This document shows positions 6,158 through 62,353 of a DNA stretch of 64,000 nucleotides, in pieces; within the stretch, counting starts at the first letter, position 1; each line of letters opens with the position of its first letter. The stretch comes from Bryobacterales bacterium (lineage in GTDB: Bacteria; Acidobacteriota; Terriglobia; Bryobacterales; Bryobacteraceae), in NCBI GenBank assembly GCA_003135055.1, contig PLDF01000083.1, positions 1 to 64,000 of the forward strand, given 5' to 3'. Position numbers and translations under genes: made by a program. The notes beneath the pieces are model-generated. The model had not been told where the DNA came from and did no database searches. It worked only from the letters and a program-made list of their open reading frames with translations.

Positions 6158-6169
6158 GACAGTTTGCGC

Positions 6170-6544: not shown

Positions 6545-6560
6545 GATTGTCCCTGGTAGT

Positions 6561-39896: not shown

Positions 39897-39901
39897 CCAC
39901 C

Positions 39902-43957: not shown

Positions 43958-46900
43958 CCTCGGCGGAAGTCCGTTCGAAATTGGTAGAGTCGCTGGAACT
44001 CGATCTGGTGGGCCCGCGCCCCGGTTTGGGCGATGCGAAGGAAATCTTGTCCCAATCGCCCTCGCGTTGGTATCTGACGGGCTTTCTGGTCCCGATCGAC
44101 GCAGCGTCCTCGCAGAAGGTAGACGAAGATGCGACCGAAGAACTGGATACGGCCGAATCCGGCGGCGTTGACGATGACGAACCGCCAGAGCGCGGCTCCG
44201 CCCGGAATCGCATCTTCCCTTCCTCGATGGGCGTGAGCGTGTTAGTTCCGGCCGAAGCCAAGGCGCTTGCAGTGACGGTAACGTGGGGAGACTACGAGCC
44301 GCGCAGCGGTCCTGAAAGCTGGCTCCGCGTTCCGCATGAACACCTTTTGACGCTCAATCTGCCGGCGAAAACCGGCAATACGCGAGAAACCGTCGTCCCG
44401 GAAAGCAAGGGTTTGAAAGTGGCGCTGCTGGTGCGCCCCGTTGAGTCCGCGGCCCTCGAAGCCGGACTGGCCGCGGGTACTCGGACGGTGTCTGTATTCC
44501 TGGTCAACCGCCGGAAGCCGGCGCCCGATGAACAGAAGGACAAGGCATTCGCCTTTCAGGCGCAACTCGATATCCGCGCCGATGTGCCGTTGGTTGCGCG
44601 GCCCGACCTGCGGGGCCTGGCGAGCGACGATTGGGACGACCGCATTGCCGACTTGCAGTATCGCGACACCGGTGAATACGCCGTCGGTCACAATGTCGCG
44701 ACAGAAGCCATTCTGGCCGATGGCCACTGCCAGGCGGTGCGCACCTGCTGGGTGCCGACGGCCGAGGTGGAGCGGGTCGCTCCCGCCCCGATCGCCGGAG
44801 TGGAATTGAAGATGGATGCCCTCGCGGCGCTGGTGGACTTTCCCGACGCGCAGGCGAAGCTCAATCCGCTGGTCACCGAGTACCGGACCTGGATCTCCGC
44901 GCAAACGGTACCCACGTTGTCAGCCAAGCGCAAAGAAACCGCCGACGGTTTGCAGAGCAAGGCAAGAGTGGCGGCGGACCGCATCGCGCTAGGCATCGCG
45001 CTGCTTGAAGATCCGCAATGTCTGGCCGCATTTCAGCTCGCCAACAAGGTGATGGCGACGGCGGCTCGGCGGCGGTTGGGCGTGATGCAGGGGAAGCCAC
45101 CTGCGTCAATCACGCCGGAATGGCGTCCTTTCCAGTTGGCATTCCTGCTGATGAATCTGCCAGGCATCGCCCGCCCCCTGGCCGAAGATCGCAAGGTGGT
45201 GGACCTGCTGTTTTTCCCTACGGGCGGCGGCAAGACCGAAGCCTACCTGGGGCTCGCCGCGTGCACGCTCGTCTTGCGACGGATGCAGAACCCCGGCATC
45301 ACGAGTGCGGGCGTCAGTGTTCTGATGCGTTACACGCTGCGACTGCTGACGCTGGATCAGTTAGGACGCGCGGCGACGTTGATTTGCGCCTTGGAGTTAG
45401 AGCGGCAGAACGACGCCAAGCTCCTGGGCGACTGGCCATTTGAAATCGGCCTCTGGGTGGGACGGGCAGCGACGCCGAACCGCATGGGTCGGAAAGGCGA
45501 CAACGACCGCGAATCGGCGCGGGCGCGGACCGTCGCGTATCTGAACGATGATCGCAAGCCGTCGCCAATTCCGCTGGAAGAGTGCCCGTGGTGCGGGACG
45601 AAGTTCAAACCGATTTCTTTCAAGCTGCTGCCGAATCCGGATGAGCCGACCGACTTGCGAATTCGTTGCGTGAATCGGAGTTGCGAGTTCGGCCGCGAGT
45701 TCTCACTGCCAATTTTGGCGGTAGACGATCCGATTTATCGCCGCCTGCCCTGCTTCATCATCGCGACGGTCGATAAGTTCGCGGGCCTGCCGTGGGTGGG
45801 GCAGGTTGGCGCGTTCTTTGGGCGGGTCAACCGCTATGACGCCAGGGCTGGTTTCTTTGGGCCGTGCGACACGGCACAGGGCACCGCCATACCGGGAGGG
45901 CGGCTGCTGCCTCCGGACCTGGTCATACAGGATGAGTTGCACTTGATCTCGGGTCCGCTGGGCACGATGGTCGGGCTTTACGAGACTGCGCTGGAAGCGC
46001 TCAGCATACGGCAACTGGATGGCGTGGCCGTCAAGCCCAAGATCATCGCCTCGACCGCGACGGTTCGCCGTGCCGATAGTCAGATTCGCGCGCTATTCAA
46101 TCGCGCGACGGTGGACATCTTTCCGCCACCGGGACCGGATCGCCGCGATTCGTTTTTTGCCCACACGCTGCCGGTATCCGAAAGTCCCGCCAGGGAGTAC
46201 GCCGGGATCGCCGCTCAGGGCCGAAGCCCGAAGGTGGTGATGCTGAGAGTGTATATGGCGCTTTTGGGGGCATCGCAAAAGTATTTCGACCGTTTGAAGG
46301 TGAAGGGGCAGGAGAATCCAGCGGACCCCTACATGACGCTGGTCGGCTATTACAACGCGCTGCGAGAACTCGGCGGAGCGCGGCGGTTGATCGAAGACGA
46401 AGTCCGCAACCGGTTGGTGGGCTACTCGTCAAGGAAGCGGCAAGGCGAGGCCGAGGGGTTGTTCGCCAACCGCCAGATCGATTACGAACCCGTCGAATTG
46501 ACCAGCCGCGAGAGCACGGCCCGGGTCTCGGAGGCCAAACGTCGCCTCGCACTGCCGTTTGGCCAGGACAAAGCCGTGCATGTCGCGATCGCCACCAATA
46601 TGATCTCGGTTGGCCTCGACATCACCCGGCTGGGCTTGATGGTGGTATTCGGGCAGCCAAAAACGAGCGCGGAATACATCCAGGCCACGAGCCGTGTAGG
46701 CCGCGCCGAGAGCCGGCCAGGTTTAGTGGTGACGATCTACAACGTCCACAAGCCGCGCGACCGCTCCCACTATGAGCGCTTTGAGATCTACCATGAGACG
46801 TTTTACCGGAGCGTGGAAGTGACCAGTGTGACGCCCTTCTCCCCGCGCGCGCTCGACAAAGGTCTGGCGGGGACGATGGTGGGTTTGGCGCGGCACATTC

Positions 46901-47316
46901 TGCCTCCGATGACTCCCGCTCGCGGCGCCGCGCAGATTCTGGCCGAAAGGGTACGACTCGACTCTGTGGTCGATACGCTGGCGGAACGGGCGCTGGGCCA
47001 CTCGACCCTTCCACCCGCGGAGGCCGATATCTTGCGGCGCCGGGTACGGGAACGGACGCTCGATCTGCTCGATGAGTGGAGCAAGGAGGCGATGGAGCTC
47101 GCGAACGTCGGCGTGGGCTTGCAGTACAACCCTACCGAGGCGGGCGGCGCGCAGCCACTGTTACGCGATTTCCTCAGTCCCGATTTGAAGAACTTGCCGC
47201 CCAATCACCGGCGCATGAAGTTCCGGGCGAACCGTTCGTTGCGGGACGTCGAGCCGAGTGTCGCCGTCCAGGTGAAGACCATCGACCTGCAGCCCGTGGA
47301 GGAAGACGAAGTATGA
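43954..47316 (+). CDS. drmA: DISARM helicase DrmA
   Basis: A 1120-residue superfamily 2 helicase of the DrmA type. Walker A is VVDLLFFPTGGGKTEAYLGL. A four-Cys cluster (ECPWCGTKF and IRCVNRSCEFG) may bind zinc. Motif II is DLVIQDELHLISGPLGTMVG (DELH), motif III IIASTATVRRADSQIR, and the C-terminal lobe has AIATNMISVGLDITRLGLMV and YIQATSRVGRAESRPGLVV. DrmA and DrmB form the core complex that loads on DNA. The ATG lies in the drmMI stop, and the gene overlaps drmB by 4 bases. Confidence 0.9.
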   Translation: MTSAEVRSKLVESLELDLVGPRPGLGDAKEILSQSPSRWYLTGFLVPIDAASSQKVDEDATEELDTAESGGVDDDEPPERGSARNRIFPSSMGVSVLVPAEAKALAVTVTWGDYEPRSGPESWLRVPHEHLLTLNLPAKTGNTRETVVPESKGLKVALLVRPVESAALEAGLAAGTRTVSVFLVNRRKPAPDEQKDKAFAFQAQLDIRADVPLVARPDLRGLASDDWDDRIADLQYRDTGEYAVGHNVATEAILADGHCQAVRTCWVPTAEVERVAPAPIAGVELKMDALAALVDFPDAQAKLNPLVTEYRTWISAQTVPTLSAKRKETADGLQSKARVAADRIALGIALLEDPQCLAAFQLANKVMATAARRRLGVMQGKPPASITPEWRPFQLAFLLMNLPGIARPLAEDRKVVDLLFFPTGGGKTEAYLGLAACTLVLRRMQNPGITSAGVSVLMRYTLRLLTLDQLGRAATLICALELERQNDAKLLGDWPFEIGLWVGRAATPNRMGRKGDNDRESARARTVAYLNDDRKPSPIPLEECPWCGTKFKPISFKLLPNPDEPTDLRIRCVNRSCEFGREFSLPILAVDDPIYRRLPCFIIATVDKFAGLPWVGQVGAFFGRVNRYDARAGFFGPCDTAQGTAIPGGRLLPPDLVIQDELHLISGPLGTMVGLYETALEALSIRQLDGVAVKPKIIASTATVRRADSQIRALFNRATVDIFPPPGPDRRDSFFAHTLPVSESPAREYAGIAAQGRSPKVVMLRVYMALLGASQKYFDRLKVKGQENPADPYMTLVGYYNALRELGGARRLIEDEVRNRLVGYSSRKRQGEAEGLFANRQIDYEPVELTSRESTARVSEAKRRLALPFGQDKAVHVAIATNMISVGLDITRLGLMVVFGQPKTSAEYIQATSRVGRAESRPGLVVTIYNVHKPRDRSHYERFEIYHETFYRSVEVTSVTPFSPRALDKGLAGTMVGLARHILPPMTPARGAAQILAERVRLDSVVDTLAERALGHSTLPPAEADILRRRVRERTLDLLDEWSKEAMELANVGVGLQYNPTEAGGAQPLLRDFLSPDLKNLPPNHRRMKFRANRSLRDVEPSVAVQVKTIDLQPVEEDEV

Positions 47317-49142
47317 CCGGCGCGCGCTACATCAAGCCTCAGGGAGAGCTGCGGCAGAGCCAGGTGGTGATGACGTTCGGTCCGGGCTCGATGGTCGATC
47401 TGCCGAAGCACTCGGTCCTGATCGCAGGACTGGACTATTGGAGTGGTGGCGGGACGGAGATCTTCGAAGCCCGCTTGGCAGCGAAGGCCGCAAAGCTCCT
47501 GGACTTGCCTTCCGTTCGCCTGGTGACGCCGCCGCCATCCGATGACGATCCGTTGGGATCGAACCCGCACATCGAGGCATTTCAGTTTCCGGAGTGGTTC
47601 ATCACTCAAGACAACGAGCGGGATTCATCGCCCATGTTCGGGCGAACCCGGCTGCTGGTACATCGGAAGGCGCTCACGCGCGGGGCCTACATTGACCGCA
47701 ACAAGAAACGCCGGTCTGTGGTGCCCATTCGCTTCGTGAGGGCGTGCCGTTGTGGGCACATCGGCGATATCGACTGGTACGCTTTCGTTCACCAGGGAAA
47801 ATCTGAATGCACCCAGCAGCAGCGGCAACTATTCATCGACGAGCGGGGAACGAGTGGCGACCTGACCGAGATCTTCATACGCTGTGAATGCGGTAAGGCG
47901 GAGCGCAGTGTCGCCCAGGCCGCGCGATTTCAGGACCGTGCTCTCGGCAACTGTGACGGAAGCAGGCCGTGGCTGGGGCCGTTCACGAAGGAGGCATGCG
48001 GCGAACCGAGCCGCTTGTTGATCCGAAGCGCTTCGAATGCGTACTTTCCACAAACGATGAGTGTGATCTCGCTGCCCGATCGTAATGAGGCCGTACGGAA
48101 GGCTGTGGACGCGGCCTGGGACTATCTCGATATCGTCGAGACGATGGAGGATCTGGAGCGCGAGATGCGCCGGCCGAAGGTACGCGAGGCGCTGGATGGC
48201 GTTTCGCCGGAGGAAGCCTTCGCGCAGATTGTGGCTCGGCGTACCGCTGCGCCCGCTCCGGACAAGTCTGTCAAGCAGGCGGAACTGGAAACGCTCGCAG
48301 CCTCGAAGGAAGAGATTGGATCGGATCAGGCAGAAGGCGTGTTTTACGCTCGCTCGTTGCCGAAGCCGATCTGGGATCGGCCGTGGATGAAGCCGATTGA
48401 TCGAATCGTTTTGGTGCATCGGTTGAGAGAAGTGGGGGCGCAGGTAGGCTTCACGCGCTTCGAGTCAGCGGCGCCTGATATTGAGGGTGAGTTGGACCTC
48501 GGCGTCAAGCGAGCCGTACTGGCTCGGGAGACGACTTGGCTGCCGGCGTACGAGAACAAGGGCGAAGGCATCTTCCTGCAGTTCAGTTCGGCGTACTTGA
48601 ATGCCTGGGTGAAGAGACCTGCGGTCGTCAAACAGGGTATTCGCCTGAAACAGGGGTTTGATGCCTGGAAAGCGGAGCGCCAAGGCAGTTCGCGGCTGTT
48701 TCCTGGACTGCCCTACGTTGCTCTGCATAGTTTCTCGCACCTGCTACTCACGGCGGTCGCCCTGGAATGCGGCTATCCGGCCAGTTCGATTCGGGAGCGA
48801 ATTTACGCGATTCCGAGCGTCGGTTACGGCGTCCTTCTATACACCGGAAGCTCGGACGCCGAAGGAACGCTGGGCGGCCTGATCCAGGTTGGCAGGCGCA
48901 TCCACAATTCGGTGCGAAGCGCGCTGGAGCTCGGGCTGCTGTGCTCGAACGACCCGGTCTGCGCGCAGCACGATCCGGAGAACAGGCAAGAGCATCGCCA
49001 CCTGCACGGAGCGGCTTGCCACGGCTGTGTTCTGACCGCCGAGACCAGTTGCGAACAGCAGAACGATTTCCTGGATCGCGCCTTGGTCGTGAAAACGGTC
49101 GAAGAATTAGGCGCTGAGTTGTTCAGCGACGCTGGATGGTGA
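47313..49142 (+). CDS. drmB: DISARM DUF1998 protein DrmB
   Basis: A 609-residue DUF1998-type protein starting at the ATG that overlaps the drmA stop; the frame upstream of it is non-coding. It begins RYIKPQGELRQSQVVMTFGP, GSMVDLP, as typical DrmB proteins do. Cys pairs at RACRCGHIGDIDW and RCECGKAE, and a C-terminal cluster (LCSNDPVCAQHDPENRQEHR, HLHGAACHGCVLTAETSCE) suggest zinc sites. Near the end SFSHLLLTAVALECGYPASS, IRERIYA is the conserved DUF1998 core. It partners DrmA. The stop overlaps the drmC start. Confidence 0.9.
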   Translation: MTGARYIKPQGELRQSQVVMTFGPGSMVDLPKHSVLIAGLDYWSGGGTEIFEARLAAKAAKLLDLPSVRLVTPPPSDDDPLGSNPHIEAFQFPEWFITQDNERDSSPMFGRTRLLVHRKALTRGAYIDRNKKRRSVVPIRFVRACRCGHIGDIDWYAFVHQGKSECTQQQRQLFIDERGTSGDLTEIFIRCECGKAERSVAQAARFQDRALGNCDGSRPWLGPFTKEACGEPSRLLIRSASNAYFPQTMSVISLPDRNEAVRKAVDAAWDYLDIVETMEDLEREMRRPKVREALDGVSPEEAFAQIVARRTAAPAPDKSVKQAELETLAASKEEIGSDQAEGVFYARSLPKPIWDRPWMKPIDRIVLVHRLREVGAQVGFTRFESAAPDIEGELDLGVKRAVLARETTWLPAYENKGEGIFLQFSSAYLNAWVKRPAVVKQGIRLKQGFDAWKAERQGSSRLFPGLPYVALHSFSHLLLTAVALECGYPASSIRERIYAIPSVGYGVLLYTGSSDAEGTLGGLIQVGRRIHNSVRSALELGLLCSNDPVCAQHDPENRQEHRHLHGAACHGCVLTAETSCEQQNDFLDRALVVKTVEELGAELFSDAGW

Positions 49143-49930
49143 TGAACGGACTGCTTACGCTCTCGGCGTCGGACCTCACCGCCTTGAAGGAGGCTCTCCG
49201 AACTGGGCGCCTGCCTGCGCCGTTTCTGCCCACCCTGATCGAACGGATCGTCCCACGTGCCGTGGCGGGCGACGTTTCAGCGGCGCTTCAGGGGATGGCC
49301 GCCGCCGGCGCCAACCGGGAGGGTCTCGTCGCTGCGCTCGAATTGCTGGCGGCCGCGCGTGCCCAGCAACCCTCCATCGACGAAGTGATAGAACTCGTCA
49401 CAACGGGTCCAGACACCGGCACGGTGACAAACCGTGACACCCAGGTGGTGGTTCAAGAGCTATTCCGAAATGCCGAACGCAGCGTTCTCGTCGTCGGTTA
49501 TGAGCTGTATCAGGCAGCGGCGGTGTTTCGGATTTTGGCTGACCGGATGGCGGAGGAACCCCGCCCGAGCGTACGCATGTTCTTGAACGTTAAGCGGCCA
49601 CTCGGAGACACCAGCACCGACAGCGAGCTCATCGCCGCCTTCGCGTTTCGTTTTCGGACCCAGCACTGGCCGAGCGAGCGAGATTTGCCGGAAATCTACT
49701 TCGATCCTCGATCCCTCGCGGTCGACGCAAGACAGAGGGCCGTCCTCCATGCCAAATGCGTCGTTATCGACGGACGAATGGCTTTCGTATCGTCTGCCAA
49801 CTTCACAGAGGCGGCCCAGGAACGAAACATCGAAGTTGGGATGCTGGTGCGGTCACCGATTGTCGCTGAACGGCTCGTGACGTTCTTTTCGGCATTGGTT
49901 TCCACAGGTGCGGCAAAGCGGGCACTGTGA
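49136..49930 (+). CDS. drmC: DISARM phospholipase-D-like protein DrmC
   Basis: A 264-residue protein with one PLD/HKD motif near the C-terminus: LHAKCVVIDGRMAFVSSANF (H-x-K-x4-D with the following SSAN), about residues 204-223. An N-terminal helical part precedes it (LTALKEALRTGRLPAPFLP), then SVLVVGYELYQAAAVFRILA. PLD-fold nucleases of this kind dimerise to form an active site with two HKD motifs. In published DISARM work DrmC was not essential for protection. It closes the operon. An in-frame ATG 6 bases downstream is an alternative start. Confidence 0.88.
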   Translation: MVMNGLLTLSASDLTALKEALRTGRLPAPFLPTLIERIVPRAVAGDVSAALQGMAAAGANREGLVAALELLAAARAQQPSIDEVIELVTTGPDTGTVTNRDTQVVVQELFRNAERSVLVVGYELYQAAAVFRILADRMAEEPRPSVRMFLNVKRPLGDTSTDSELIAAFAFRFRTQHWPSERDLPEIYFDPRSLAVDARQRAVLHAKCVVIDGRMAFVSSANFTEAAQERNIEVGMLVRSPIVAERLVTFFSALVSTGAAKRAL

Positions 49931-50315: not shown

Positions 50316-51470
50316 GTGCTAACAATGAAGCTTGCGAAGGCAAAACAAGGAGCGAAAGTTGTTGGGACAGGGTTCCTCCCACTGGACCTTGTCTATCGTG
50401 ACGACGATCCGTCCAAACTGCAAGCTTATGCCGGGGGAACCTGCGGCAATGTCCTGGCAATTCTCGCATTTCTAGGTTGGGATGCGTACCCCATTGCCAG
50501 ACATAGTGATTCTCCTCTTGCGCAGATCATAAAGGACGACTTGAAATTGTGGGGTGCCCATTTGGAATTCATCGGCTTGGAGCCAACTGCGCTGCCGCCC
50601 GTTGTCGTCCAGAGGGTCTTCGCAAAACCACGTGGCGCGAAAACTCACAGTTTTGCATGGGCCTGCCCCGGGTGCGGAGCTCCACTTCCGAGCTTCAAGC
50701 CAGTCCTCGCCAAGAGCGTCGCCCAGGTGACCGACCGCCTGCCAAAGATGCAGGCCTTCTTCTTTGACCGGGTTTCCCGGTCAGCGCTCGATCTTGCGAA
50801 AAAGTGCGCTGATTCGGGTGGCGTCGTGGTCTTTGAACCCTCAATGATCGGCGATCCGCGACTATTCTCCGAAGCGATCAGACTAAGCCACATTTTCAAG
50901 TACTCTCAGGATCGACTTTCGGACGTTCACGAAGTTCGCGGCTCGGCAGAACCGTTGATTGAAATTGAGACTCTTGGTTCGGCGGGATTGCGGTATCGGC
51001 GGCGCGGAAAGCATTGGAAGGAAGTTGACGCGTTTTCAATCCGTCGAACCGTTGATACTTCCGGCGCCGGCGACTGGTGTACAGCAGGAATCCTACACCT
51101 GCTTTGTCAGGACGGAATGCCCGGTTTACAGCGTGCAACGGATCAAGAAACCCTCGCGGCAGTGCGACTTGGTCAGGCAATGGCCGCTTGGACCTGCCAA
51201 TTCGAGGGGGCGCGAGGCGGGATGTATGGGATTGCCTGGGCCGATTGGAAGAAGGCGGTCCTGAAGATCATCAAGAGCGGATCTACCGTCGACCAAACTA
51301 CGCTGCAAGTGGTGCGAGTTTGTCCCGCAGTTCTTCTCGACGTGTGCCGCCCCGGGGCCTTCGATCACGTGGATCACGGTGCTCGCGTGCCGCATCAGAC
51401 TGGATCTCAGGGCTGCGCGACGCTTTGGCCAGGGGGTGGCGTTGGGAAAGCCCTACCTCAGCGAACTTAG
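50316..51470 (+). CDS. PfkB-family (ribokinase-like) carbohydrate or nucleoside kinase
   Basis: A 384-residue kinase with a GTG start 10 bases after GGGAG. It has the N-terminal substrate region GTGFLPLDLVYRDDD and the glycine pair YAGGTCGNVLAILAFLGW (as in PfkB signature 1). The C-terminal PfkB signature with the catalytic Asp is RTVDTSGAGDWCTAGILHLL (~residues 248-267). A Cys pair (WACPGCGAPL) in the middle is unusual for the family. The substrate is probably a sugar, sugar phosphate or nucleoside. It is the first gene of a five-gene coupled operon, and its end overlaps the SIS-HAD gene. The tail after WADWKKAVLKIIKS looks extended. Confidence 0.82.
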   Translation: MLTMKLAKAKQGAKVVGTGFLPLDLVYRDDDPSKLQAYAGGTCGNVLAILAFLGWDAYPIARHSDSPLAQIIKDDLKLWGAHLEFIGLEPTALPPVVVQRVFAKPRGAKTHSFAWACPGCGAPLPSFKPVLAKSVAQVTDRLPKMQAFFFDRVSRSALDLAKKCADSGGVVVFEPSMIGDPRLFSEAIRLSHIFKYSQDRLSDVHEVRGSAEPLIEIETLGSAGLRYRRRGKHWKEVDAFSIRRTVDTSGAGDWCTAGILHLLCQDGMPGLQRATDQETLAAVRLGQAMAAWTCQFEGARGGMYGIAWADWKKAVLKIIKSGSTVDQTTLQVVRVCPAVLLDVCRPGAFDHVDHGARVPHQTGSQGCATLWPGGGVGKALPQRT

Positions 51471-53385
51471 CCTACTGTCAGACACCTTTGATTGGGCTCG
51501 CAGCCAGGACCTCCAATACGTTACGCGGGCAGTGAGCGCATCTTCATTTCTTCCGATCTTGGCAATCGGGTCTGGCGGTTCTATGGCTGCCGCGGATTAC
51601 CTGGCGGTTCTTCACACTCGTCTCGCCGGTCATCATAGTACGACTCACACGCCTCTTGAGTTTCTCCGCTCAGAGGCTCGGATGGACGAGTTCTCCGTGT
51701 GGTTACTCTCAGCTGGCGGTCGGAATGTGGATATTCTCCGAAGCGCCAGAAAAGCCATCCAAGTAGAGCCGGCCCACCTGGCCATTTTTTGTGCTTCAAA
51801 CGGCAGCCCTCTTGCAAAAATGGCATCACCACTGGCCATTGACCTTCTAGAGTATGAGCCGCCTGCCGGAAAAGACGGGTTTCTTGCGACTAACTCTCTG
51901 GCTTCCTTTCTGCTCCTCCTTGCCCGAACGTACTCAGACGCTATCGGCACATCATTTGTTAGCTCTCTCCCCGAGTTGCTAGACGCTGCTGTGCCAGAGT
52001 CGAGTGATTTATGCGCTCTTCGGAAAAAGTTCACACCGTTGTTGGACCGCGAACACTGGCTGGTCCTCTATGATCCGGGTTGCCGCCCGATGGCGACGGA
52101 TATGGAATCGCGATTCAGCGAAGCGGCTCTGGGATCGATCAAAGTTAGTGACATTAGGAATTTTGCCCACGGCAGGCATCATTGGATCGCGAAGCGCGAA
52201 TCGACCTCCGCAGTAGTCATCTTGAGCCAACCGGGTACGGCGAAAGTGGCCACGAGGTCGCTCGATTTGCTCCCTCGGTCGCTTCCTCGGATCCATTTGC
52301 AGTTTTCCGACAATCCCGTAATAGCACCAGTTGGCGGAATCTTCCTCTCGATGGAAATCGCCGGCTGGGTAGGTGAGGCGCGAGGCATCGATCCAGGAAG
52401 GCCAGGAGTTCCGGAGTTTGGCCGGCGGCTGTATAATCTTTCGTCAAATCCCTTGCCTGGCTCGAAGCTCCAATCCGTGATGCAGATCATCGCCAGAAAG
52501 GCCCGGGTCACACCCGATTCTCTGCGAGCCTCGGAGCTTGACAAGGTGTGGCAAGCGGCGTTGGAGAGTTTCCGAGATGAATTGTACCGTACGCCGATCA
52601 AAGGGATCGTCTTCGATTACGATGGAACTCTGGTCGACGTTCAGGATCGCTTCGATCCGCCGAAACTGCCAGTATCCGAAGCGCTAACCAAGTTACTCAC
52701 ATCTGGGGTTCGGATCGGAATCGCAACGGGTCGTGGACGATCGGCCCGCCGAGATCTGAGGGAAGTCATTTCAAGGGATTATTGGCCGCACATTCTTATG
52801 GGTTATCACAATGGCGCCGAACTCGGTCCGCTCGGGGACGAAGCCACGCCAGACTCGACAAACGGCTCACTTGCCCCGGCGATCGCTAAGGCCCTGCAAC
52901 TGCTCGAAAACCAGCCTGCTATCTGGAGGCGCCTGACAGTTGACCCATCCCATTCGCAGATCGGCCTTCAATGGAAGTCGAAGATTCTTGGATGGCATCT
53001 AAGTTCTCTGCTCCAACCATTGATGCCAGCCCTGCACGGTCTGGGTTTACAGTTAGTGAGTTCCGGACATAGCATCGACTTGCTCGCACCTGGTGTTTCT
53101 AAGAAAGGGGTCATCCTTCGCTTGGCGGAATCCGAGGCCATATCACTCTCCGAGATCCTGGTGATCGGAGACCGGGGCCGAGCCCCGGGCAATGACGCTG
53201 AGATGCTGTCCCACCGTCCGTCGCTCAGCGTGGACGAAGTGTCCGATGAAGCCTCGACCTGTTGGCGACTTACCCCGGCGATGCTCAAAGGGCCAGCAGC
53301 GACTCTTTGGTACCTTGGCCGCCTTTCGACACGGAAGAAGTGTCCTGGAGCTGTCTTTTTCAAGAAGGGCAGCCTTACGAAATGA
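51442..53385 (+). CDS. SIS sugar-isomerase domain fused to HAD phosphatase
   Basis: Two domains in ~647 residues. Residues ~20-350 are a double SIS fold (ILAIGSGGSMAAADYLAVLH, VWLLSAGGRNVDILRSARKA), as in GlmS or arabinose-phosphate isomerases that handle phosphosugars. From ~385 it is a HAD phosphatase of the Cof/trehalose-phosphatase kind: motif I GIVFDYDGTLVDVQDRFDPP, motif II IGIATGRGRSARRDL and motif IV ILVIGDRGRAPGNDAEML. The start is set at TTG 51442 (AGGGGG upstream); GTG 51436 is equally possible. It overlaps the kinase end by ~29 bases and the PRTase ATG by 4 (ATGA). Phosphosugar isomerisation plus dephosphorylation is the inferred chemistry. Confidence 0.8.
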   Translation: MGKPYLSELSLLSDTFDWARSQDLQYVTRAVSASSFLPILAIGSGGSMAAADYLAVLHTRLAGHHSTTHTPLEFLRSEARMDEFSVWLLSAGGRNVDILRSARKAIQVEPAHLAIFCASNGSPLAKMASPLAIDLLEYEPPAGKDGFLATNSLASFLLLLARTYSDAIGTSFVSSLPELLDAAVPESSDLCALRKKFTPLLDREHWLVLYDPGCRPMATDMESRFSEAALGSIKVSDIRNFAHGRHHWIAKRESTSAVVILSQPGTAKVATRSLDLLPRSLPRIHLQFSDNPVIAPVGGIFLSMEIAGWVGEARGIDPGRPGVPEFGRRLYNLSSNPLPGSKLQSVMQIIARKARVTPDSLRASELDKVWQAALESFRDELYRTPIKGIVFDYDGTLVDVQDRFDPPKLPVSEALTKLLTSGVRIGIATGRGRSARRDLREVISRDYWPHILMGYHNGAELGPLGDEATPDSTNGSLAPAIAKALQLLENQPAIWRRLTVDPSHSQIGLQWKSKILGWHLSSLLQPLMPALHGLGLQLVSSGHSIDLLAPGVSKKGVILRLAESEAISLSEILVIGDRGRAPGNDAEMLSHRPSLSVDEVSDEASTCWRLTPAMLKGPAATLWYLGRLSTRKKCPGAVFFKKGSLTK

Positions 53386-54180
53386 ATCAGAAACTCGGCC
53401 TTCAACTCCTCGGAGAGATCATGCAGTGGTCTGACGAGCAAGCACGGGACGAGTTCCGCTGGTTGAAGCTAATGTCGCGCATTCGATATGACGGTTATGA
53501 AGATTTTCGGGCTGGCGTGAGGTTTCTCGAACGACTGAGCGTTTGGCTTCAGCAGTTCAAGCCGCAACATCGCGAAACCGCTTATCAGTTTGTCAAGAAT
53601 CGGCTGGTTTATATAGGCCCCGCCGAGATGCAACTGCTTGTTGAACGCCTGTATCCCGAAGTCATTGAACGCCGTCTCGTGCGAGCGGTATCTACAGCCC
53701 AGGAGATTCCGCCGTATCTTGTGTGGAGAAGCCCAGTGGCGGTAGCTGACCTAATTGCGCTCAGACGCAAGTCACTGTTCATGGCACTGAGCGATGGCGC
53801 CAGGATTGACGAATTTCGCCGTGCGAATGTCGGGATCCTCTCGAATGAGCAGATTGTGGTCGCGACACAGCTTGATGGATCAAAGTGGAGGGACCTACTA
53901 AAGGAGCTTCGTAAGGATCAAGGCGCGAGTGCGACATTTGAGGAGATTTACCTCATCGATGACTTTGTTGCTTCGGGAACAACTTTGCTGCGTTTCGATG
54001 AGGAAGGCCAAGCCTGGAAGGGAAAGCTAGTTAAATTCAGGGACACGCTTCGAGAGGCACAAGACGCACTTAGCGGCGCGAAGGCCACGGCAGATGCGGC
54101 ACGGATCCACATTCACCATTACGTAGCATCTGCCTACGCCCGGTGCGTGTCAACGACTTTGAGACACTTCTTTTGATTAT

Positions 54181-55203
54181 TTAGTGAGTTTCTTCTTCTG
54201 AGTTTAATGGTTTGTTGATCCAAACCTCCTTTGGAAGCTGAGGCGGTGAAGGGGGGCGGCGGACGAACCGTTCGGGATGGTCGCGGTATGCGGCATCGAG
54301 AACGAGCTGGCGGTTTTCGCGGATGCTGACCGCTGCACCGTGGTGCACCATCGACGGCGACATCATGCCGATTCCAGAGTGGCGATGTTCGTCGTTGTAC
54401 CAGGGGAAAAACGTCTGGCAGAATGCCCGGCTGTCTTGGATACAGCCAAACCGATCTGGGAACTCGGGGCGGTATTTCATGGTGCGGAACTGGCTTTCTG
54501 AGTAAGGGTTGTCGTTGGACGTGTAGGGCCGGCTGTGGGTCTTGGTGACGCTGAGGTCGGCGAGCAGGAGGGCCACGGGTTTGGACCGCATGGCCGAGCC
54601 GCGGTCGGCATGGAGGGTGAGCTGGCTTGGCTGGATGTTCTGCTTTTCGCAGGATTCCTCGATGAGCTTCTTGGCCAGTTCGGCGCTCTCGCGCGGAGCC
54701 ACCATCCAGCCAACGACATAGCGGCTGAAGACGTCGAGGATGACGTAGAGATAAAAGTACGTCCACTTGGCGGGGCCGCGCAGCTTGGTGATGTCCCAAC
54801 TCCAAAGCTGGTTGGGCGCGGAGGCCAATAACTCTGGCTTTTGGTATTGCGGATGAGTGAGTTGATCCCGTCGTTCGCGCGTGGCGCCGTCCTCTTCCAA
54901 GACCCGATACATGGTCCGTGTAGAACAGAGATACTGGCCTTCATCGAGCAATGTGGCATGGATCGCAGTCGGCGAGCAATCCTGGAATCGCTGAGAATTC
55001 AAGACGGCTCGAACCGCTTGGATCTCCTCGGCGCCCAATGCCCGGGCAGGAGTTGGCCGAGCGACTGGCGGCAACGGAGAGTGGGCCGACAGGGTCGGTC
55101 CGAGCAATGGCCTCTGCCGATAGAAGGAAGCACGAGCGACGCCGAGGACGTCGCAGGCGGATTCGATTCCGACGGTGACGGAGAGGAGCAAGACGGCGTC
55201 CAT
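54181..55203 (-). CDS. IS3-family transposase OrfB (DDE integrase core)
   Basis: A 340-residue rve-type transposase. An N-terminal HTH_21-like region (SACDVLGVARASFYRQR; EEIQAVRAVLNSQRFQDCSP) precedes the catalytic core. The DDE residues are visible: first Asp in NQLWSWDITKLRGPAKW, second in LTLHADRGSAMRSKP, and Glu in NDNPYSESQFRTMKYRPEFP. The end has FFPWYNDEHRHSGIGMMSP. Its ATG (55201-55203) overlaps the OrfA stop as TAATG. The same frame is open upstream to the A8 slippery run, so it may be made as an OrfAB fusion by -1 frameshifting. Confidence 0.9.
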   Translation of the reverse strand: MDAVLLLSVTVGIESACDVLGVARASFYRQRPLLGPTLSAHSPLPPVARPTPARALGAEEIQAVRAVLNSQRFQDCSPTAIHATLLDEGQYLCSTRTMYRVLEEDGATRERRDQLTHPQYQKPELLASAPNQLWSWDITKLRGPAKWTYFYLYVILDVFSRYVVGWMVAPRESAELAKKLIEESCEKQNIQPSQLTLHADRGSAMRSKPVALLLADLSVTKTHSRPYTSNDNPYSESQFRTMKYRPEFPDRFGCIQDSRAFCQTFFPWYNDEHRHSGIGMMSPSMVHHGAAVSIRENRQLVLDAAYRDHPERFVRRPPSPPQLPKEVWINKPLNSEEETH

Positions 55204-55703
55204 TATGGCTTCCCCTCCGGCTCGCTGGCCAGGATCGGACGGCCCAACAGAGTGGCCACTTTTTTTTGAATGTCGATTACGATTTCGGCTTTACGTAGTT
55301 CCTCGATGAGACGCTCGGTCTGGCGACGCAGTTGGAGATTCTCTTCGGCCAAGGGATCGCGTTTGGATTTGGGGCCGCGCTTCTGCGGCGCCAATGCCTG
55401 CAGAACGCCGGCGTCCCGCTCGCGGCGCCAGGTGGCTAGCAGGGACGAATACAGACCTTCGCGACGGAGGAGTGCGCCGATACCGCCGGTGCCCTTGGCC
55501 TGGTCGGCGGCGGACAGAATCTGCTGCTTGTATTCGGCAGTGAAGCGGCGGCGCTTGGCTTGCGCGACGACCTCGGGATCGGGACGGGCGGTGGTGTTGC
55601 CGCCGGTGGTGCTCCGGTCACCCTCGCTACGCTCGGGCTCCCTCCGTCCCACCGGCGGCAACACCACGGGGGAAGAAGAAGCTGGTAACTCGTTGTTTTT
55701 CAC
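55203..55703 (-). CDS. IS3-family OrfA (HTH protein)
   Basis: A 166-residue first-frame protein. A low-complexity Pro/Ser/Glu-rich N-terminus is followed by the transposase_8-type HTH (KRRRFTAEYKQQILSAADQA, GGIGALLRREGLYSSLLATW) and a leucine-rich helix (DPLAEENLQLRRQTERLIEE) that would dimerise with OrfB. The A8 run in the codons for QKKV is followed within 60 bases by the stop at 55203-55205. Confidence 0.85.
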   Translation of the reverse strand: MKNNELPASSSPVVLPPVGRREPERSEGDRSTTGGNTTARPDPEVVAQAKRRRFTAEYKQQILSAADQAKGTGGIGALLRREGLYSSLLATWRRERDAGVLQALAPQKRGPKSKRDPLAEENLQLRRQTERLIEELRKAEIVIDIQKKVATLLGRPILASEPEGKP

Positions 55704-56147
55704 TTTAGGAGATTCTTTCTCGCCCTGCTCTTTAATTAAGCGACGAGAAGTGTCTCACTCATATTGGCACGGAGGGGCCGAATCGATCATCAGGGATCGC
55801 CTGCTTGACATGAGGCGCTCGACACCTAGTGCGGATTGGTTGGATCGAGTGACGTTCTCCTTTGGATATGTCCTCCCGGCCGATCTGCCGCTCACAAAAC
55901 AGTCCACCGAGCCGTTCCGACACCTTGTCGAGGACTACTATGATCCAGGCCTTCAAAATCGCCATTCGGCAGTGAGCGGCGTCGAGTCTATGATGTTTGG
56001 CTACAAGGAGTGTGGTCTGCCCCTAGTCTTTGAGCACAATACGCCGAACAACTCCCTCCCGCTGTTGTGGGCTGAGACCACAGGCGATTCGGTGAAGGGG
56101 GTGCATTCAATGAGACCCCTATTCCGGCGACGTCAGAGGCACTCCGA

Positions 56148-58085
56148 ATGAGCAACCCATTTGAGAAGAGGGCAACCGAGTACCTCCGCGATGATGAAGC
56201 ATTTCTGTCTGTCGTGACTCCTGCGCCTCTCTTTACCTTCTTTGAACCCAAGGCAAAGGACGGCGTCCTTTTTGATCGACTCGTCGTTGTTGTCGGAACT
56301 CCAGGGAGCGGGAAGACGACGATTGCGACTCTTCTGCAGTATAAGACGATGTATACCCTCCAGCGGACAACCGGCATGGAGAATCACAAAGAACTGATCC
56401 AGGCATTGAACCGTTGTGGAGCAATGAAGGATGGTGAGATCGTTGTTTGTGGATGCAGACTAGCACTCGAATCTGAATATCGCGATTTCTGGGAGCTACC
56501 TTATCCGGAAAGCGTAAAAACGGGGTTGATGCACTCTCTGTTGCAAGCGCGTGCAGTGATTTCGTGGATACAGAGTTTCCGTGAAGGCGATGCTCATTCA
56601 TTGGAGGAAATAGAGATCGTTCCGAAAGATCCTTCACCGGGCAGGATCGAACAAATTGGTGGCATCTCCGGACCCGAAGTCTACGCTCGAGCTTGTGAGA
56701 TGGAGAAAGAGATCTATCGGATTGGATCCGCCTTGGTTGCGCCAAAACTAGAGGCACTCTCCACACTAGCACTAGAAGGATATTCGCCTTTCGAAGTCAT
56801 AGAGAAGCTCTCCGTGCGTCGGACCGGTTCCGATTCCGCTCGCGAGTATAAGCCACTCGTCATTTTGGATGACGCACACAGCCTCCATCCCCAGCAGCTA
56901 GCAGAGTTGTTGAGGTGGCTTGCGCGACGTGAACAGCAGGCATCGAGATGGGTCCTCATGCGACTTGATTCGCAGACTCCGCAGGCAGCTCTGCTCGATT
57001 CGTTCGAGGACGAGCAATCCGAAGAGACGGGGCGCGGCCCGAAGATCACCAGAGAAGTGACTACAATTTGGCTGCAGCGCAAAGATGATCGCCGGACCCA
57101 ACGCACTCAGTTTCGATCGATGGCCAGGCAAATGGCCGATCGATACTTACGCCTCATGGAGATCTTCAATCGCGGTGGAATCACGGGTTTGGCGAGTATC
57201 CTTGACGTTCCAGCCGAATCGCTATCGAGCGGCCGCGAGAAAGAACTCGCGAAGCGCGTCCAGAGGATTCAAGAAGAGCTACAAATTTCCGCGATGATCC
57301 GAAAGGATCTAGAGAAGGAGATTGCCGCCTATTTCGAGGGCGCCGGCAGCGAAGGTGATGCCGCCGACGTCCGGCTAGCGATGCTCCGAGTTCTGATGCA
57401 TCGCTTTGCGAGGCGGACGCCCCAGGTGGGGCTTTTTGAGGCGGAAACCCAGGAACCGTCCCGACCAGTCATTGCAAACGCAAGTATCGCGGATGGAGCT
57501 CGAATTCAATTGATGCATGAATACAGCCGTCCCTATTACTTCGGCATGGACGCGTTATGTGACGGCTCATCGGAAAACGCTGAGATCTTCCTGCAACTCG
57601 CCGGCCGGTTGGTCTCTCTCTCAGAAACGCGAATTATTCGGTCAAATCGGTCCGGGCCGAGCCTTCCGGCGTCACTTCAACACAAGGAGTTAAGACAGAA
57701 AGCAGTGGAGATGATCGACGAGTGGAGGTTTCCTGAACGAAGACTGGTAAAGGCCCTCGTCGATGGCATTGCGGCGGAGTGCATTACAAAGACGCTTGAG
57801 CCCACGGCCTCGCTGGGTGGCGGCCCGAATGCGTTCGGCATACCTCAAGGGGCGTTTGAGCAGATACCCAAAATGCACCCGCGCCTTGCCGAAGTCCTGA
57901 AGTATGGTGTCGGCTATAATGTCATCCACATTAAGCAGGACCACGGAACCAAACACGTGAGCTGGTGTCTTGTCGAACTCGGTGGAGTCGCAATTCTCAA
58001 ACACGGCCTTAGCTTTCGTCGGGGAAATTTTCTGGAACGTACGCCCGAAGATCTTGCTCTCTTAATCGAAGGCGAGTTCCCATGA
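56148..58085 (+). CDS. P-loop ATPase, ORC/Cdc6-like type
   Basis: A 645-residue NTPase. Walker A is VVVVGTPGSGKTTIATLL (residues ~46-63), and Walker B is YKPLVILDDAHSLHPQQLAE (~234-253), with a sensor-like segment RWVLMRLDSQT. The family is close to what I recall as 'ORC-CDC6-like', an AAA+/STAND-related branch. The C-terminal half (REKELAKRVQRIQEELQISA, DEWRFPERRLVKALVDGIA) is helical and may include winged-helix or sensor parts. It starts in the stop of the PRTase gene (ATGA) and ends overlapping the next gene by 4 bases. It may regulate the metabolic enzymes or sense a trigger. Confidence 0.78.
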   Translation: MSNPFEKRATEYLRDDEAFLSVVTPAPLFTFFEPKAKDGVLFDRLVVVVGTPGSGKTTIATLLQYKTMYTLQRTTGMENHKELIQALNRCGAMKDGEIVVCGCRLALESEYRDFWELPYPESVKTGLMHSLLQARAVISWIQSFREGDAHSLEEIEIVPKDPSPGRIEQIGGISGPEVYARACEMEKEIYRIGSALVAPKLEALSTLALEGYSPFEVIEKLSVRRTGSDSAREYKPLVILDDAHSLHPQQLAELLRWLARREQQASRWVLMRLDSQTPQAALLDSFEDEQSEETGRGPKITREVTTIWLQRKDDRRTQRTQFRSMARQMADRYLRLMEIFNRGGITGLASILDVPAESLSSGREKELAKRVQRIQEELQISAMIRKDLEKEIAAYFEGAGSEGDAADVRLAMLRVLMHRFARRTPQVGLFEAETQEPSRPVIANASIADGARIQLMHEYSRPYYFGMDALCDGSSENAEIFLQLAGRLVSLSETRIIRSNRSGPSLPASLQHKELRQKAVEMIDEWRFPERRLVKALVDGIAAECITKTLEPTASLGGGPNAFGIPQGAFEQIPKMHPRLAEVLKYGVGYNVIHIKQDHGTKHVSWCLVELGGVAILKHGLSFRRGNFLERTPEDLALLIEGEFP

Positions 58086-59158
58086 GCGCCTCGATTCGTT
58101 GGCAGCCGTGTATAAGCCACCGGCCGGATGAGGTTGAGGAATTCGTTGCCAGCTACTTCGGCAGTCGTGATTTTAAGATCCTTTTGATCGCGGGCGCGGG
58201 CTTTGACCCTCGGGCGACATCCGTCGCCCAGCTACTTCGTACGCACTGCAAATTATTGCCTGACGCGGTCTTAATAAAGGAGGAACGGCCAAATCCTGAC
58301 AGTGTGCTTGTGGAGCGGGCTAGAGCGAACCTGGAGTTACTCACGCCATGCGTAAGGAACGCAGTGGTGCTTGAGGTAAATGTGTTCGCGTCCGACGGAG
58401 CCGTCGTCGGTGGGAGATCTGTCCTTCGACAGCTTGACGCTATCGACCTTTTGCCATATTCTGACGTCGTTATCGATTCTAGCGCCTTATCGATTGGGAT
58501 AAGCTTTCCCCTTGTCAAGTACGTTCTGGAGCGTGTTCAGCTAACCGGCCAGAATGTGCATCTGTTTGCTTCAGATTGGCCCGCTCTGGACCACGTAATC
58601 CAACCTCAGCTTGCGGATCGGGCCTCAAATGTTCACGGCTTCAGGAAGGTAACTGAACTCTACAGCGCTGCGTCCGTCGCTAAACTCTGGCTTCCGCAGC
58701 TTGCGCCTTCCGGGCGCCAGACATTGCAGAGGATTTTTGACGAGGTATTACCGAGCGACACATGCCCCATTCTGCCCTTCCCCTCAGCTCAGCCTAAGCT
58801 CTCCGATCGACTCCTGGCGGAGTATCTTGCTGAATTGGAAAGCACTTGGAGTGTCGATACGGGCAGTATCATCTTTGCGGATGAGAATGATCCTTTGGGC
58901 CTGTATAGAACGATCCTCAGAATCGACGACGAGCGAACGCCGGCTTTCGAGGCATTGGGCGGTTCGCTGTTGATCCTGTCTCCGCTCGGCAGCAAGATGC
59001 TTGCGATAGGGGCACTCATGGCGGCACTTGATCGTGACCTTCCCGTGTACTATGTGGAAGCTAGAGGCTACGAAGTAGATTGGAAGACAGCGGGTAAAGT
59101 CGATCTGACTGCTGCGTCGATTCGCCACGTGTGGCTCGCAGGAAGTGTCTACCATTAA
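58082..59158 (+). CDS. Unrecognised 358-residue protein of the kinase-PRTase operon
   Basis: I do not recognise the family. Visible features are a Rossmann-like first strand with a Gly turn (ILLIAGAGFDPRATSVAQLL), a central DVVIDSSALSIGISFPLVKY, and a conserved-looking region PFPSAQPKLSDRLLAEYLAE. The C-terminal block LLILSPLGSKMLAIGALMAA, LDRDLPVYYVEARGYEVDW combines 'SPLGSK', 'GALMA' and 'YVEA'. These are the likely active or binding segments. There is no transmembrane helix. It is the last gene of the run, overlapping the ATPase gene (ATGA). A role as effector or as sugar/nucleotide-binding partner is only inferred. Confidence 0.65.
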   Translation: MSASIRWQPCISHRPDEVEEFVASYFGSRDFKILLIAGAGFDPRATSVAQLLRTHCKLLPDAVLIKEERPNPDSVLVERARANLELLTPCVRNAVVLEVNVFASDGAVVGGRSVLRQLDAIDLLPYSDVVIDSSALSIGISFPLVKYVLERVQLTGQNVHLFASDWPALDHVIQPQLADRASNVHGFRKVTELYSAASVAKLWLPQLAPSGRQTLQRIFDEVLPSDTCPILPFPSAQPKLSDRLLAEYLAELESTWSVDTGSIIFADENDPLGLYRTILRIDDERTPAFEALGGSLLILSPLGSKMLAIGALMAALDRDLPVYYVEARGYEVDWKTAGKVDLTAASIRHVWLAGSVYH

Positions 59159-59942: not shown

Positions 59943-60014
59943 ATCCGATGGTGGTATTGTTGAAGCGTATTAGCCAACGGCATATACGCCTCATTTGGAG
60001 GGCGAGTTCATCCT

Positions 60015-62327: not shown

Positions 62328-62353
62328 GTACGCATTCTGATCGGAGTTGGTGA

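What the first reader, a model, noticed from the sequence alone, without database searches (positions are those of the whole stretch)
50316..59158. Five-gene coupled operon: PfkB kinase, SIS-HAD, PRTase, ORC-like ATPase and an orphan protein
Seen: five plus-strand genes, each overlapping the next (kinase/SIS-HAD by ~29 bases, the other three junctions as ATGA). The encoded parts are a phosphosugar kinase, phosphosugar isomerase and phosphatase, a PRPP-loop protein, a P-loop ATPase and a protein I cannot place. It lies directly after DISARM. Family knowledge: I recall PRTase-CE and ORC-CDC6-like as names from predicted conflict systems. Inference: an ATPase-gated pathway that makes or removes a ribosyl or sugar-phosphate compound, perhaps as a signal or nucleotide-depleting weapon in phage defence. 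No experimental work on this exact set is known to me.
Basis: partly seen in the sequence, partly recalled or inferred. Interest (0 to 1): 0.88.

Follow-up and report, generated by a model that had tools for sequence, protein, structure and literature searches.

The report
Mobile five-gene CARF-ATPase-PRTase defence module
Five overlapping genes next to a known anti-virus system in a soil bacterium prove to be a conserved travelling set, found in three bacterial phyla and sometimes beside other defence genes, that joins an ATPase switch and a likely signal-binding protein to enzymes handling sugar phosphates; it probably helps cells resist viruses, though this copy has been broken by a jumping gene.

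Summary
Five plus-strand genes (50316-59158) overlap by 29 bases and three ATGA junctions. The third (PRTase) is split by an IS3-like element (54141-55776; duplication GCC). The 'orphan' fifth protein is not an orphan: it matches PADLOC CARF6 models (E 2e-106), and a low-confidence model of its first half is closest to Can2/Csm6 CARF domains. The set recurs. Of 20 loci compared (Acidobacteriota, Alpha- and Betaproteobacteria, Actinomycetota), 19 carry all five genes. In 72,556 plasmid records, the 17 with the CARF gene also carry PRTase and SIS-HAD. PRTase-ORC-CARF order is the same in 22 of 22 triads, while SIS-HAD and PfkB move; two plasmids have two triads and one SIS-HAD/PfkB pair. Neighbours in 7 of 20 loci include DISARM, type I R-M, Gabija or Shedu genes; a NADAR N-glycosidase gene accompanies 7 of 20. 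In one relative an HD phosphohydrolase (HD-CE) stands before ORC-CARF6 instead, so PRTase probably sits in an exchangeable effector slot. Best reading: a mobile, CARF- and AAA+-controlled defence module whose output is PRPP/phosphosugar chemistry. The module is well supported, defence likely, the chemistry inferred. New variant of a kind whose parts already have Pfam and PADLOC names.

The parts
50316..51470 (+). PfkB-family sugar/nucleoside kinase (GTG 50316 or ATG 50325 start), with a Cys-Pro in an insert that is invariant in the 16 aligned and further Cys in some relatives
   Evidence: Pfam PfkB 1.5e-8; GAGD-type catalytic Asp invariant in 16 sequences; profile closest to fructokinases/sugar kinases in PDB
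51442..53385 (+). Double-SIS phosphosugar isomerase-like part fused to HAD-IIB phosphatase; start TTG 51442 inferred from homologues (ORF open from 51379)
   Evidence: HAD: Pfam 2.9e-10, NCBIfam Cof 3e-12 below its cut-off. SIS: profile hits NagB-II 8eol / 3hba at 3e-4; E248 and H264 align with GlmS E489/H505 in gene numbering. Homologue starts
53382..54140 (+). PRTase-CE, 5' part (N-terminal region and PRPP loop IDDFVASGTT), cut by the IS
   Evidence: Pfam PRTase-CE 2e-5, 25.1 bits, under the 27-bit cut-off; tblastn to the intact L006 gene 85% over 256 aa
54141..55776 (.). IS3-like insertion element inside the PRTase gene; target duplication GCC (54138-54140 and 55777-55779); imperfect terminal inverted repeats (21 of the outer 31 bases match, 12 of them in one run)
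   Evidence: End comparison; a second copy, 91% identical over 1477 bases, in the same genome; IS3 family by gene layout, not by a family search
54181..55203 (-). Transposase orfB of the IS3-like element
   Evidence: ORF; recognised by reading only
55203..55703 (-). Transposase orfA of the IS3-like element
   Evidence: ORF; recognised by reading only
55780..56151 (+). PRTase-CE, 3' part
   Evidence: Pfam PRTase-CE 1.1e-10, 42.3 bits over a cut-off of 27; tblastn 81% over 124 aa to L006
56148..58085 (+). ORC-CDC6-like AAA+ ATPase (Walker A GTPGSGKTT, Walker B ILDDAH)
   Evidence: Pfam 1e-11, 44.7 bits over 27; P52 G53 G55 K56 and D241 invariant in 17 sequences
58082..59158 (+).
   Evidence: PADLOC PDLC01916 2e-106, PDLC01910 9.5e-87; model's N-terminal half best matched by Can2 (Z 9.6) and Csm6 (Z 9.2) CARF domains
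36654..49930 (+). Neighbouring DISARM system (drmD, methylase, drmA, drmB, drmC); not part of the module
   Evidence: PADLOC, Pfam; drmB and drmC also directly upstream in L006

Best explanation
It is a mobile, defence-associated module with a fixed three-gene core: PRTase-CE, ORC/CDC6-like AAA+ ATPase, CARF6 protein. Attached to the core is a movable pair of sugar-phosphate enzymes: a double-SIS isomerase fused to a HAD phosphatase, and a PfkB kinase. Shown: conservation, fixed core order, active-site motifs kept in relatives, defence-gene neighbours in some loci, an IS-broken PRTase here. Inferred from comparison: the ATPase and the CARF protein are the control part, and the PRTase sits in an exchangeable effector slot, because one relative has an HD phosphohydrolase (HD-CE) there. 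Inferred mechanism: on infection the AAA+ ATPase, gated by a small ligand bound to the CARF protein, switches on the PRTase. The PRTase then uses PRPP to put a phosphoribosyl group on an unknown acceptor, or simply drains PRPP and nucleotides. SIS-HAD and PfkB isomerise, strip and re-add phosphate on the sugar part, either completing the product or burning ATP in a cycle. NADAR, where present, is the N-glycosidase that reverses the PRTase product. The result would be nucleotide starvation or dormancy that stops phage growth. The window copy is probably inactive.
For: Set conserved: 19 of 20 loci with all five. The 17 of 72,556 plasmid records with the CARF gene also hold SIS-HAD and PRTase, and 15 of the 17 the ORC by tblastn; the other two have it by HMM (L020, L021). 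Core order PRTase-ORC-CARF in 22 of 22 triads (one with a truncated PRTase); L016 and L022 have two triads with one SIS-HAD/PfkB pair, one triad from each of two deep clades, and their SIS-HADs group with those of L014 and L020 although the triads do not: the pair is exchanged. Effector-slot exchange: L087 is C5 methylase, HD-CE, ORC-CDC6-like, CARF6. PRTase-CE is fused to an AAA/STAND ATPase in L026, follows nSTAND7 in L083 and directly precedes a NADAR-methylase protein in L082. NADAR in 7 of 20 loci. Defence neighbours: DISARM (window, L006), type I R-M with one YgjP-like gene between (L023), GajA/GajB (L012, interrupted by IS; L028, GajB split), SduA (L031), caspase (L027). The L006 PRTase matches PADLOC's PRTase_III-A models, 1.4e-16. 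Catalytic motifs conserved. Precedent for CARF-gated HAD chemistry that lowers ATP and IMP: PMC12715507, abstract.
Against: No enzyme activity or phage protection has been tested for any member. Defence neighbours were sought by PADLOC only among selected genes, in ten of the 20 loci, with no background rate; some loci lie among T4SS, catabolic or transport genes (L014, L019, L021). The CARF call rests on PADLOC model names and a low-confidence model (pLDDT 47); its C-terminal half is untested, and the two halves do not align with each other. A relative of SIS-HAD outside the system lies in a sugar ABC-transporter/aldose-epimerase operon (L030), so its chemistry may be ordinary sugar metabolism; the PRTase also occurs alone (L029). 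One HD-CE locus carries the effector-slot argument; a second HD-CE locus looked at (G301) has no ORC or CARF match, and L102 is only a hint, since its kinase-like N-terminus had no Pfam kinase match.
Confidence: 0.45

Rival explanations
1. Signal-maker reading: PRTase, SIS-HAD and PfkB build a new phosphoribosyl or sugar-nucleotide messenger that the CARF protein senses; the AAA+ ATPase is the trigger, and the killing step is done by the ATPase/CARF complex or by a host enzyme.
For: CARF proteins are ligand sensors by family knowledge; no known messenger synthase is among the five genes; isomerase + PfkB kinase + HAD phosphatase is the enzyme logic that makes sugar-1-phosphates in the heptose pathway (GmhA/HldE/GmhB, recalled); a ribosyl N-glycosidase (NADAR) could erase such a signal (PMC9503650 passages).
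Against: No nucleotidyltransferase or separate effector is among the five genes; in L087 the same ORC-CARF6 pair stands with HD-CE instead of PRTase and sugar enzymes, which fits an output slot better than a signal source; weak NCBIfam matches to heptose-7-P kinase are no better than to fructokinase.
Confidence: 0.22
2. The set is a metabolic or plasmid-fitness operon (sugar or nucleoside salvage) that rides with defence genes by chance.
For: SIS, HAD and PfkB are relatives of sugar enzymes; a SIS-HAD relative sits in a sugar-uptake operon (L030); several loci are on plasmids among catabolic genes, and L021 has sugar-uptake genes next to it on the other strand.
Against: No transporter belongs to the set in the 15 annotated plasmid loci; an ORC-type ATPase, CARF6 and PRTase-CE are fixed members; DISARM lies directly upstream in the window and L006 and type I R-M one gene upstream in L023; presence is patchy (3 of 396 Acidobacteriota genomes, the window's own included).
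Confidence: 0.13
3. SIS-HAD, PfkB and NADAR are the antidote side: they destroy a toxic phosphoribosyl product of the PRTase so that the core triad can be kept in the cell.
For: The pair moves and is shared between two triads in L016 and L022; NADAR acts on ribosyl N-glycosides (PMC9503650 passages) and stands next to PRTase-CE again in the unrelated L082.
Against: Each of the 20 loci has a SIS-HAD, while NADAR was found in only 7 (the L022 stretch begins inside SIS-HAD, so it may be cut off there); other PRTase-CE loci (L083, L085) gave no SIS-HAD or PfkB match in the stretches read.
Confidence: 0.15

Closest known systems
HD-CE / ORC-CDC6-like / CARF6 locus (Pfam PF24391, PF24389; PADLOC CARF6), here L087
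   Same: ORC-CDC6-like ATPase directly followed by a CARF6 protein, preceded by an enzyme of a '-CE' family
   Different: The enzyme is an HD phosphohydrolase, not a PRTase; no SIS-HAD or PfkB match in the 13 kb read; a C5 DNA methylase lies upstream
PRTase-CE genes in other loci (Pfam PF24390; PADLOC PRTase_III-A)
   Same: Same PRTase family; mostly beside or fused to an NTPase, ParB or DNA-modification gene
   Different: Those loci have ParB, STAND ATPases, SNF2 helicase or methylases instead of ORC-CARF6 and the sugar enzymes
CARF-HAD phosphatase effectors of type III-A CRISPR (Chp, PMC12715507)
   Same: CARF and HAD phosphatase in one immune pathway; the output lowers ATP and IMP (abstract)
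   Different: There CARF and HAD are one membrane protein driven by Cas10; here they are separate genes, HAD is fused to SIS, and no Cas10 is among the five genes
DprA-PRTase system of P2-like phages and retron PRTases (PMC9122126)
   Same: A PRTase proposed as effector next to a sensor (passages read)
   Different: Sensor is DprA or a retron; no ORC, CARF or sugar enzymes are mentioned in the passages read
DISARM
   Same: Adjacent in the window and in L006
   Different: A separate system: the 15 annotated plasmid loci of the module list no Drm gene by product name

Membership tests
PRTase-CE (PF24390) | Match above Pfam gathering score (27 bits) | tested here: met
   3' part of the window gene 42.3 bits, 5' part 25.1 (gene split); intact L006 78.9, L007 69.9
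PRTase-CE (PF24390) | PRPP-binding loop (hydrophobic strand, D-D, G-T/S) | tested here: met
   D194, F195 and G199 invariant, D193 nearly so, in the 16 aligned
PRTase-CE (PF24390) | Phosphoribosyl transfer activity | not testable with these tools
   needs a purified enzyme; structure model unusable (pLDDT 47)
ORC-CDC6-like (PF24389) | Match above gathering score | tested here: met
   window 44.7 bits, L006 49.8, L007 51.7 against 27
ORC-CDC6-like (PF24389) | Walker A and Walker B | tested here: met
   P52 G53 G55 K56 and D241 invariant in 17
CARF superfamily, CARF6 | Match to CARF6 models | tested here: met
   PDLC01916 2e-106, PDLC01910 9.5e-87, weak CARF3 matches 0.0017 and 0.016; PADLOC gives no cut-off here
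CARF superfamily, CARF6 | CARF Rossmann fold | tested here: inconclusive
   N-terminal half of a low-confidence model: first five rows are Can2 and Csm6 (Z 9.2-9.6), Card1 8.2, with KtrA 8.9, TubZ 8.8 and other Rossmann folds between and below; C-terminal half not tested
CARF superfamily, CARF6 | Second CARF copy in the same chain | tested here: inconclusive
   halves do not align by hhalign; the PADLOC model name implies several copies
CARF superfamily, CARF6 | Binds a cyclic oligonucleotide | not testable with these tools
   needs binding assays
CBASS / type III CRISPR signalling | Messenger synthase (CD-NTase or Cas10) in the locus | tested here: inconclusive
   none among the five genes, none named in the annotated plasmid loci; unnamed proteins were not all scanned
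Double-SIS isomerase/deaminase (GlmS, NagB-II type) | SIS fold and the Glu and His of the isomerase site | tested here: met
   profile hits 8eol and 3hba at 3e-4 over the first SIS domain and the start of the second; Pfam SIS itself only 0.012 and 1 of 15 members at 0.01; E248 and H264 nearly invariant and aligned with GlmS E489/H505 (role of these residues recalled)
HAD-IIB phosphatase | DxDGT, GR, Lys and GD motifs | tested here: met
   D413, D415, G416, T417, G451, R452, K575, G597, D598 invariant in 15; Hydrolase_3 in 14 of 15 members
PfkB kinase | C-terminal GAGD catalytic motif | tested here: met
   G246, G248, D249 invariant in 16
Ordinary sugar-metabolism operon | Sugar transporter or pathway genes in the same operon | tested here: not met
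   not within the module in the 15 annotated plasmid loci; L021 has them adjacent on the other strand; within an operon only for the outlier L030
DISARM | Gene present with drm genes across genomes | tested here: not met
   drm genes seen only in window and L006; none by product name in 15 annotated plasmid loci; L007 contig is too short upstream to tell, L024 barely scanned

The most novel reading that the evidence does not exclude
A new immune chemistry: an infection-sensing AAA+ ATPase and a CARF protein control a PRTase that uses PRPP to make a phosphoribosyl compound; a dedicated isomerase-phosphatase and a kinase then remodel its sugar, and NADAR erases it. The compound would be either a new CARF messenger or a nucleotide-like poison, a kind that I did not find described in the papers I could search.
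Probability: 0.3. Interest if true: 0.88.

Novelty: new variant of a known kind. Interest (0 to 1): 0.66.

Why it matters
The module gives a concrete, testable case of CARF-linked control without a known messenger synthase among its genes, and of sugar-phosphate enzymes recruited into what looks like immunity. It is compact, mobile (17 plasmid records, eight of them typed as conjugative by PLSDB) and apparently intact in several soil bacteria, so protection, the role of each gene and the metabolite can be tested directly. It also suggests a general plan, an exchangeable enzyme plus ORC-type ATPase plus CARF6, that would organise other unplaced loci.

Tried and rejected
Fold of PRTase: AlphaFold on the intact L006 protein with two sequences gave pLDDT 47 and was not used. 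Fold of the CARF protein: pLDDT 47; Foldseek had no match under E 0.001 (best 0.0012, 6lfn; Can2 among ranks 26-38); only the VIA re-alignment put CARF proteins on top, over residues 20-197. Profiles of CARF and PRTase found no related solved structure. GlmS by hhalign aligned only the first SIS domain and with low probability; the second was aligned by MAFFT. Trees were made for CARF, ORC and SIS-HAD only.

Tandem CARF repeat inside the chain: looked for, not found. Heptose-type pathway (GmhA/HldE/GmhB): attractive by enzyme kinds, but no nucleotidyltransferase and no specific family match. Viral origin: no relative of the CARF protein in phage records or, by short patterns, in IMG/VR, nor of the PRTase profile in IMG/VR. 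HD-CE survey: 76 of 366 genomes match, 42 over the cut-off; I read only G343 (L087) and G301 (L103, neither ORC nor CARF hit), and left the other strong ones (G119, G318, G316) unread. The wider family searches ring below the cut-off in control genomes: PF24390 in 4 of 14, PF24389 in 1 of 14, HD-CE in 1 of 14; the CARF6 models ring in none. PF24389 and PF24390 outside this system do not strictly co-occur: in G345 they are on different contigs. The PRTase also occurs alone in NZ_CP121643 (L029) and weakly in NZ_CP018229; a short CARF match in NZ_CP053441 (L032) is a fragment.

Literature: ten text searches (at most 20 titles listed in each) showed no paper describing the five-gene set; the terms PRTase-CE and CARF6 found none that bears on it. 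Papers seen: PMC12715507 abstract and outline; PMC9122126, PMC9503650, PMC13092281, PMC12839542, PMC7824862, PMC4012209, PMC7159879 passages by term only. A CARF census of 2020, a 2020 paper on uncharacterised immune components and a 2015 paper on nucleotide-centric systems (recalled) are not held, so prior description there cannot be excluded.
Full report
OBSERVATION. The window carries five plus-strand genes at 50316-59158. Reading the DNA confirms three ATGA junctions (53382, 56148, 58082). The third gene is interrupted. An element from 54141 to 55776 is flanked by GCC/GCC, has imperfect inverted ends and two minus-strand ORFs laid out as in IS3 elements (by reading); a 91% copy exists elsewhere in the genome. 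Both PRTase pieces still show dN/dS of 0.05 and 0.10 against L006, like the other four genes (0.07-0.12), so the module was under selection until recently. Against L007, dS is saturated in most comparisons and was not used.

WHAT THE PROTEINS ARE. Pfam: PfkB, HAD (Hydrolase_3), PRTase-CE on both pieces, ORC-CDC6-like; the fifth had no meaningful Pfam match, nor did the 19 members of its alignment. PADLOC: the fifth is CARF6 (E 2e-106), and the PRTase resembles PRTase_III-A (1.4e-16 for the intact L006 protein). The CARF assignment got independent but modest support: a low-confidence model (pLDDT 47), re-aligned against Foldseek's own best 1000 chains, has Can2 (Z 9.6, rmsd 4.0, 132 residues) and Csm6 (Z 9.2) as its first five rows and Card1 at 8.2; KtrA (8.9), TubZ (8.8) and other Rossmann folds lie between and below. 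Foldseek itself ranked Can2 only 26th and lower. The first half of SIS-HAD looks like a double SIS: its profile finds NagB-II-type structures at 3e-4 over the first SIS domain and the start of the second, and its Glu and His, 16 residues apart, align with GlmS E489/H505 in gene numbering (that these are the isomerase residues is recalled). HAD motifs, the PfkB GAGD motif, Walker A/B and the PRPP loop are conserved in all or nearly all of the 15-17 relatives aligned.

THE SET RECURS. A genome scan found two near relatives, both Acidobacteriota, with all five genes in the same order and an intact PRTase of 376 aa: L006 (also directly after DISARM) and L007. tblastn in 72,556 plasmid records found 17 records with the CARF gene, 15 with the ORC, 18 with SIS-HAD and 19 with the PRTase. 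All 17 CARF records are in the SIS-HAD and PRTase lists. Extras: one SIS-HAD relative in a sugar-uptake operon (L030), one lone PRTase (L029) and one weak PRTase match in an unannotated record. PfkB was not searched in plasmids on its own. Three of 396 Acidobacteriota genomes match the CARF6 model, one being the window's own; the other two gave more distant copies (L023, L024). HMMs built here found all five components in 19 of the 20 loci that I fetched and compared (window, L006, L007, L011-L024, L027, L028, L031); L021 lacks PfkB. Two of the 17 plasmid records (NZ_CP116695, CP039919) were not fetched. L028 has several genes split into pieces. The hosts are Acidobacteriota, Alpha- and Betaproteobacteria and Actinomycetota.

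ARCHITECTURE. PRTase-ORC-CARF is in that order in all 22 triads (the second PRTase of L016 is truncated). SIS-HAD and PfkB are found before, after or on both sides. L016 and L022 carry two triads, one from each of two deep clades of the ORC and CARF trees, but one SIS-HAD/PfkB pair; their SIS-HADs group with those of L014 and L020, which have triads of different clades. So the triad is the core and the pair is an attachable unit. NADAR, a ribosyl N-glycosidase family (PMC9503650, passages), stands beside the set in 7 of 20 loci, in five of them with a small HTH protein. One such NADAR matches an NCBI model named as an anti-phage NADAR protein, far below its cut-off (63.9 against 240 bits), and reaches the cut-off of the riboflavin-intermediate N-glycosidase model (80.3 against 73.7).

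WIDER FAMILY. Outside the set, PRTase-CE genes in Acidobacteriota were fetched in seven loci, with some neighbours scanned in six: with ParB and a D12 methylase (L025, L085), fused to an AAA/STAND ATPase (L026), after an SNF2 helicase and before a NADAR-methylase protein (L082), after nSTAND7 (L083), and with its own wHTH next to an M14 peptidase (L084); L086 was not scanned. The strongest ORC-CDC6-like match outside the set (L087) lies between HD-CE and a CARF6 protein. In L102 an ORC-CDC6-like domain sits in a 919-aa protein followed by a CARF6 match of 3.4e-7. The plainest reading is an exchangeable enzyme in front of an ORC-CARF6 control pair, with PRTase-CE being one such enzyme; it rests mainly on L087.

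DEFENCE CONTEXT. Known defence genes near the set: DISARM (window, L006), a complete type I R-M set with one YgjP-like gene between (L023), GajA/GajB (L012, with IS genes between them; L028, GajB in two pieces), SduA of Shedu (L031), a caspase protein (L027). That is 7 of 20, from a partial scan: PADLOC was run on selected neighbours of ten loci only (window, L006, L012, L013, L018, L023, L024, L027, L028, L031), and with no background rate. Others lie beside T4SS or catabolic genes. Presence is patchy, and all relatives outside Acidobacteriota found here are on plasmids, the only collection searched for them with success.

MECHANISM. Shown: conservation, architecture, motifs. Inferred: (1) ORC ATPase as trigger, CARF as ligand-binding gate; (2) PRTase as output, using PRPP; (3) SIS-HAD and PfkB acting on the sugar phosphate, either to finish the product or as an ATP-burning cycle; (4) NADAR reversing the N-glycosidic bond. 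CARF-controlled HAD activity that lowers ATP and IMP is known (PMC12715507, abstract), and PRTases are proposed effectors in a DprA pair and in retrons (PMC9122126, passages). I hold the existence of a conserved module as near certain, a defence role as likely (about 0.8), and the chemistry above as one of three open readings.

NOVELTY. The component families already have names in Pfam (PRTase-CE, ORC-CDC6-like, HD-CE) and PADLOC (CARF6), so someone has seen parts of this. Ten text searches (listed under Tried and rejected) showed no description of the five-gene set or of its SIS-HAD/PfkB/NADAR attachment, but three likely papers could not be read. I therefore file it as a new variant of a known, predicted kind.

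Noticed in passing
L082 6785-10830: SNF2 helicase (3341-6766), PRTase-CE, then a 1032-aa protein joining NADAR to an HmaB-like DNA methylase: a PRTase-NADAR link inside a helicase-methylase locus.
   Followed up: partly
L087 3283-8307: C5 methylase, HD-CE, ORC-CDC6-like, CARF6 in a row: a second ORC-CARF6 locus with another enzyme in front.
   Followed up: partly
L102 4795-8680: 919-aa protein with a kinase-like N-terminus and an ORC-CDC6-like domain, followed by a CARF6 match; no Pfam kinase match.
   Followed up: partly
L030 8912-10825: SIS-HAD relative without the second-SIS HGRH motif, in a sugar ABC-transporter/aldose-epimerase operon: a possible metabolic cousin that could hint at the substrate.
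   Followed up: partly
L016 8943-21117 and L022 180-13083: Two triads of different clades with one SIS-HAD/PfkB pair; the second PRTase of L016 is truncated or frameshifted.
   Followed up: partly
L028 5972-12958: PRTase, CARF and SIS-HAD genes are all split into pieces: a decaying copy or sequencing errors, on a conjugative plasmid beside Gabija genes (GajB also split).
   Followed up: no
L012, L013, L016, L022, L027, L031: A gene annotated as RHE_PE00001 family protein recurs within about 10 kb of the module on these plasmids.
   Followed up: no
window 59257-62430: Downstream ORFs (59257-59973, 60015-60671) had no Pfam match; 60505-62430 on the minus strand has HTH domains.
   Followed up: no
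L025 195-2862 and L085 4508-7173: ParB-N protein, PRTase-CE and a D12 adenine methylase together in two genomes: a small recurring PRTase-CE locus.
   Followed up: no
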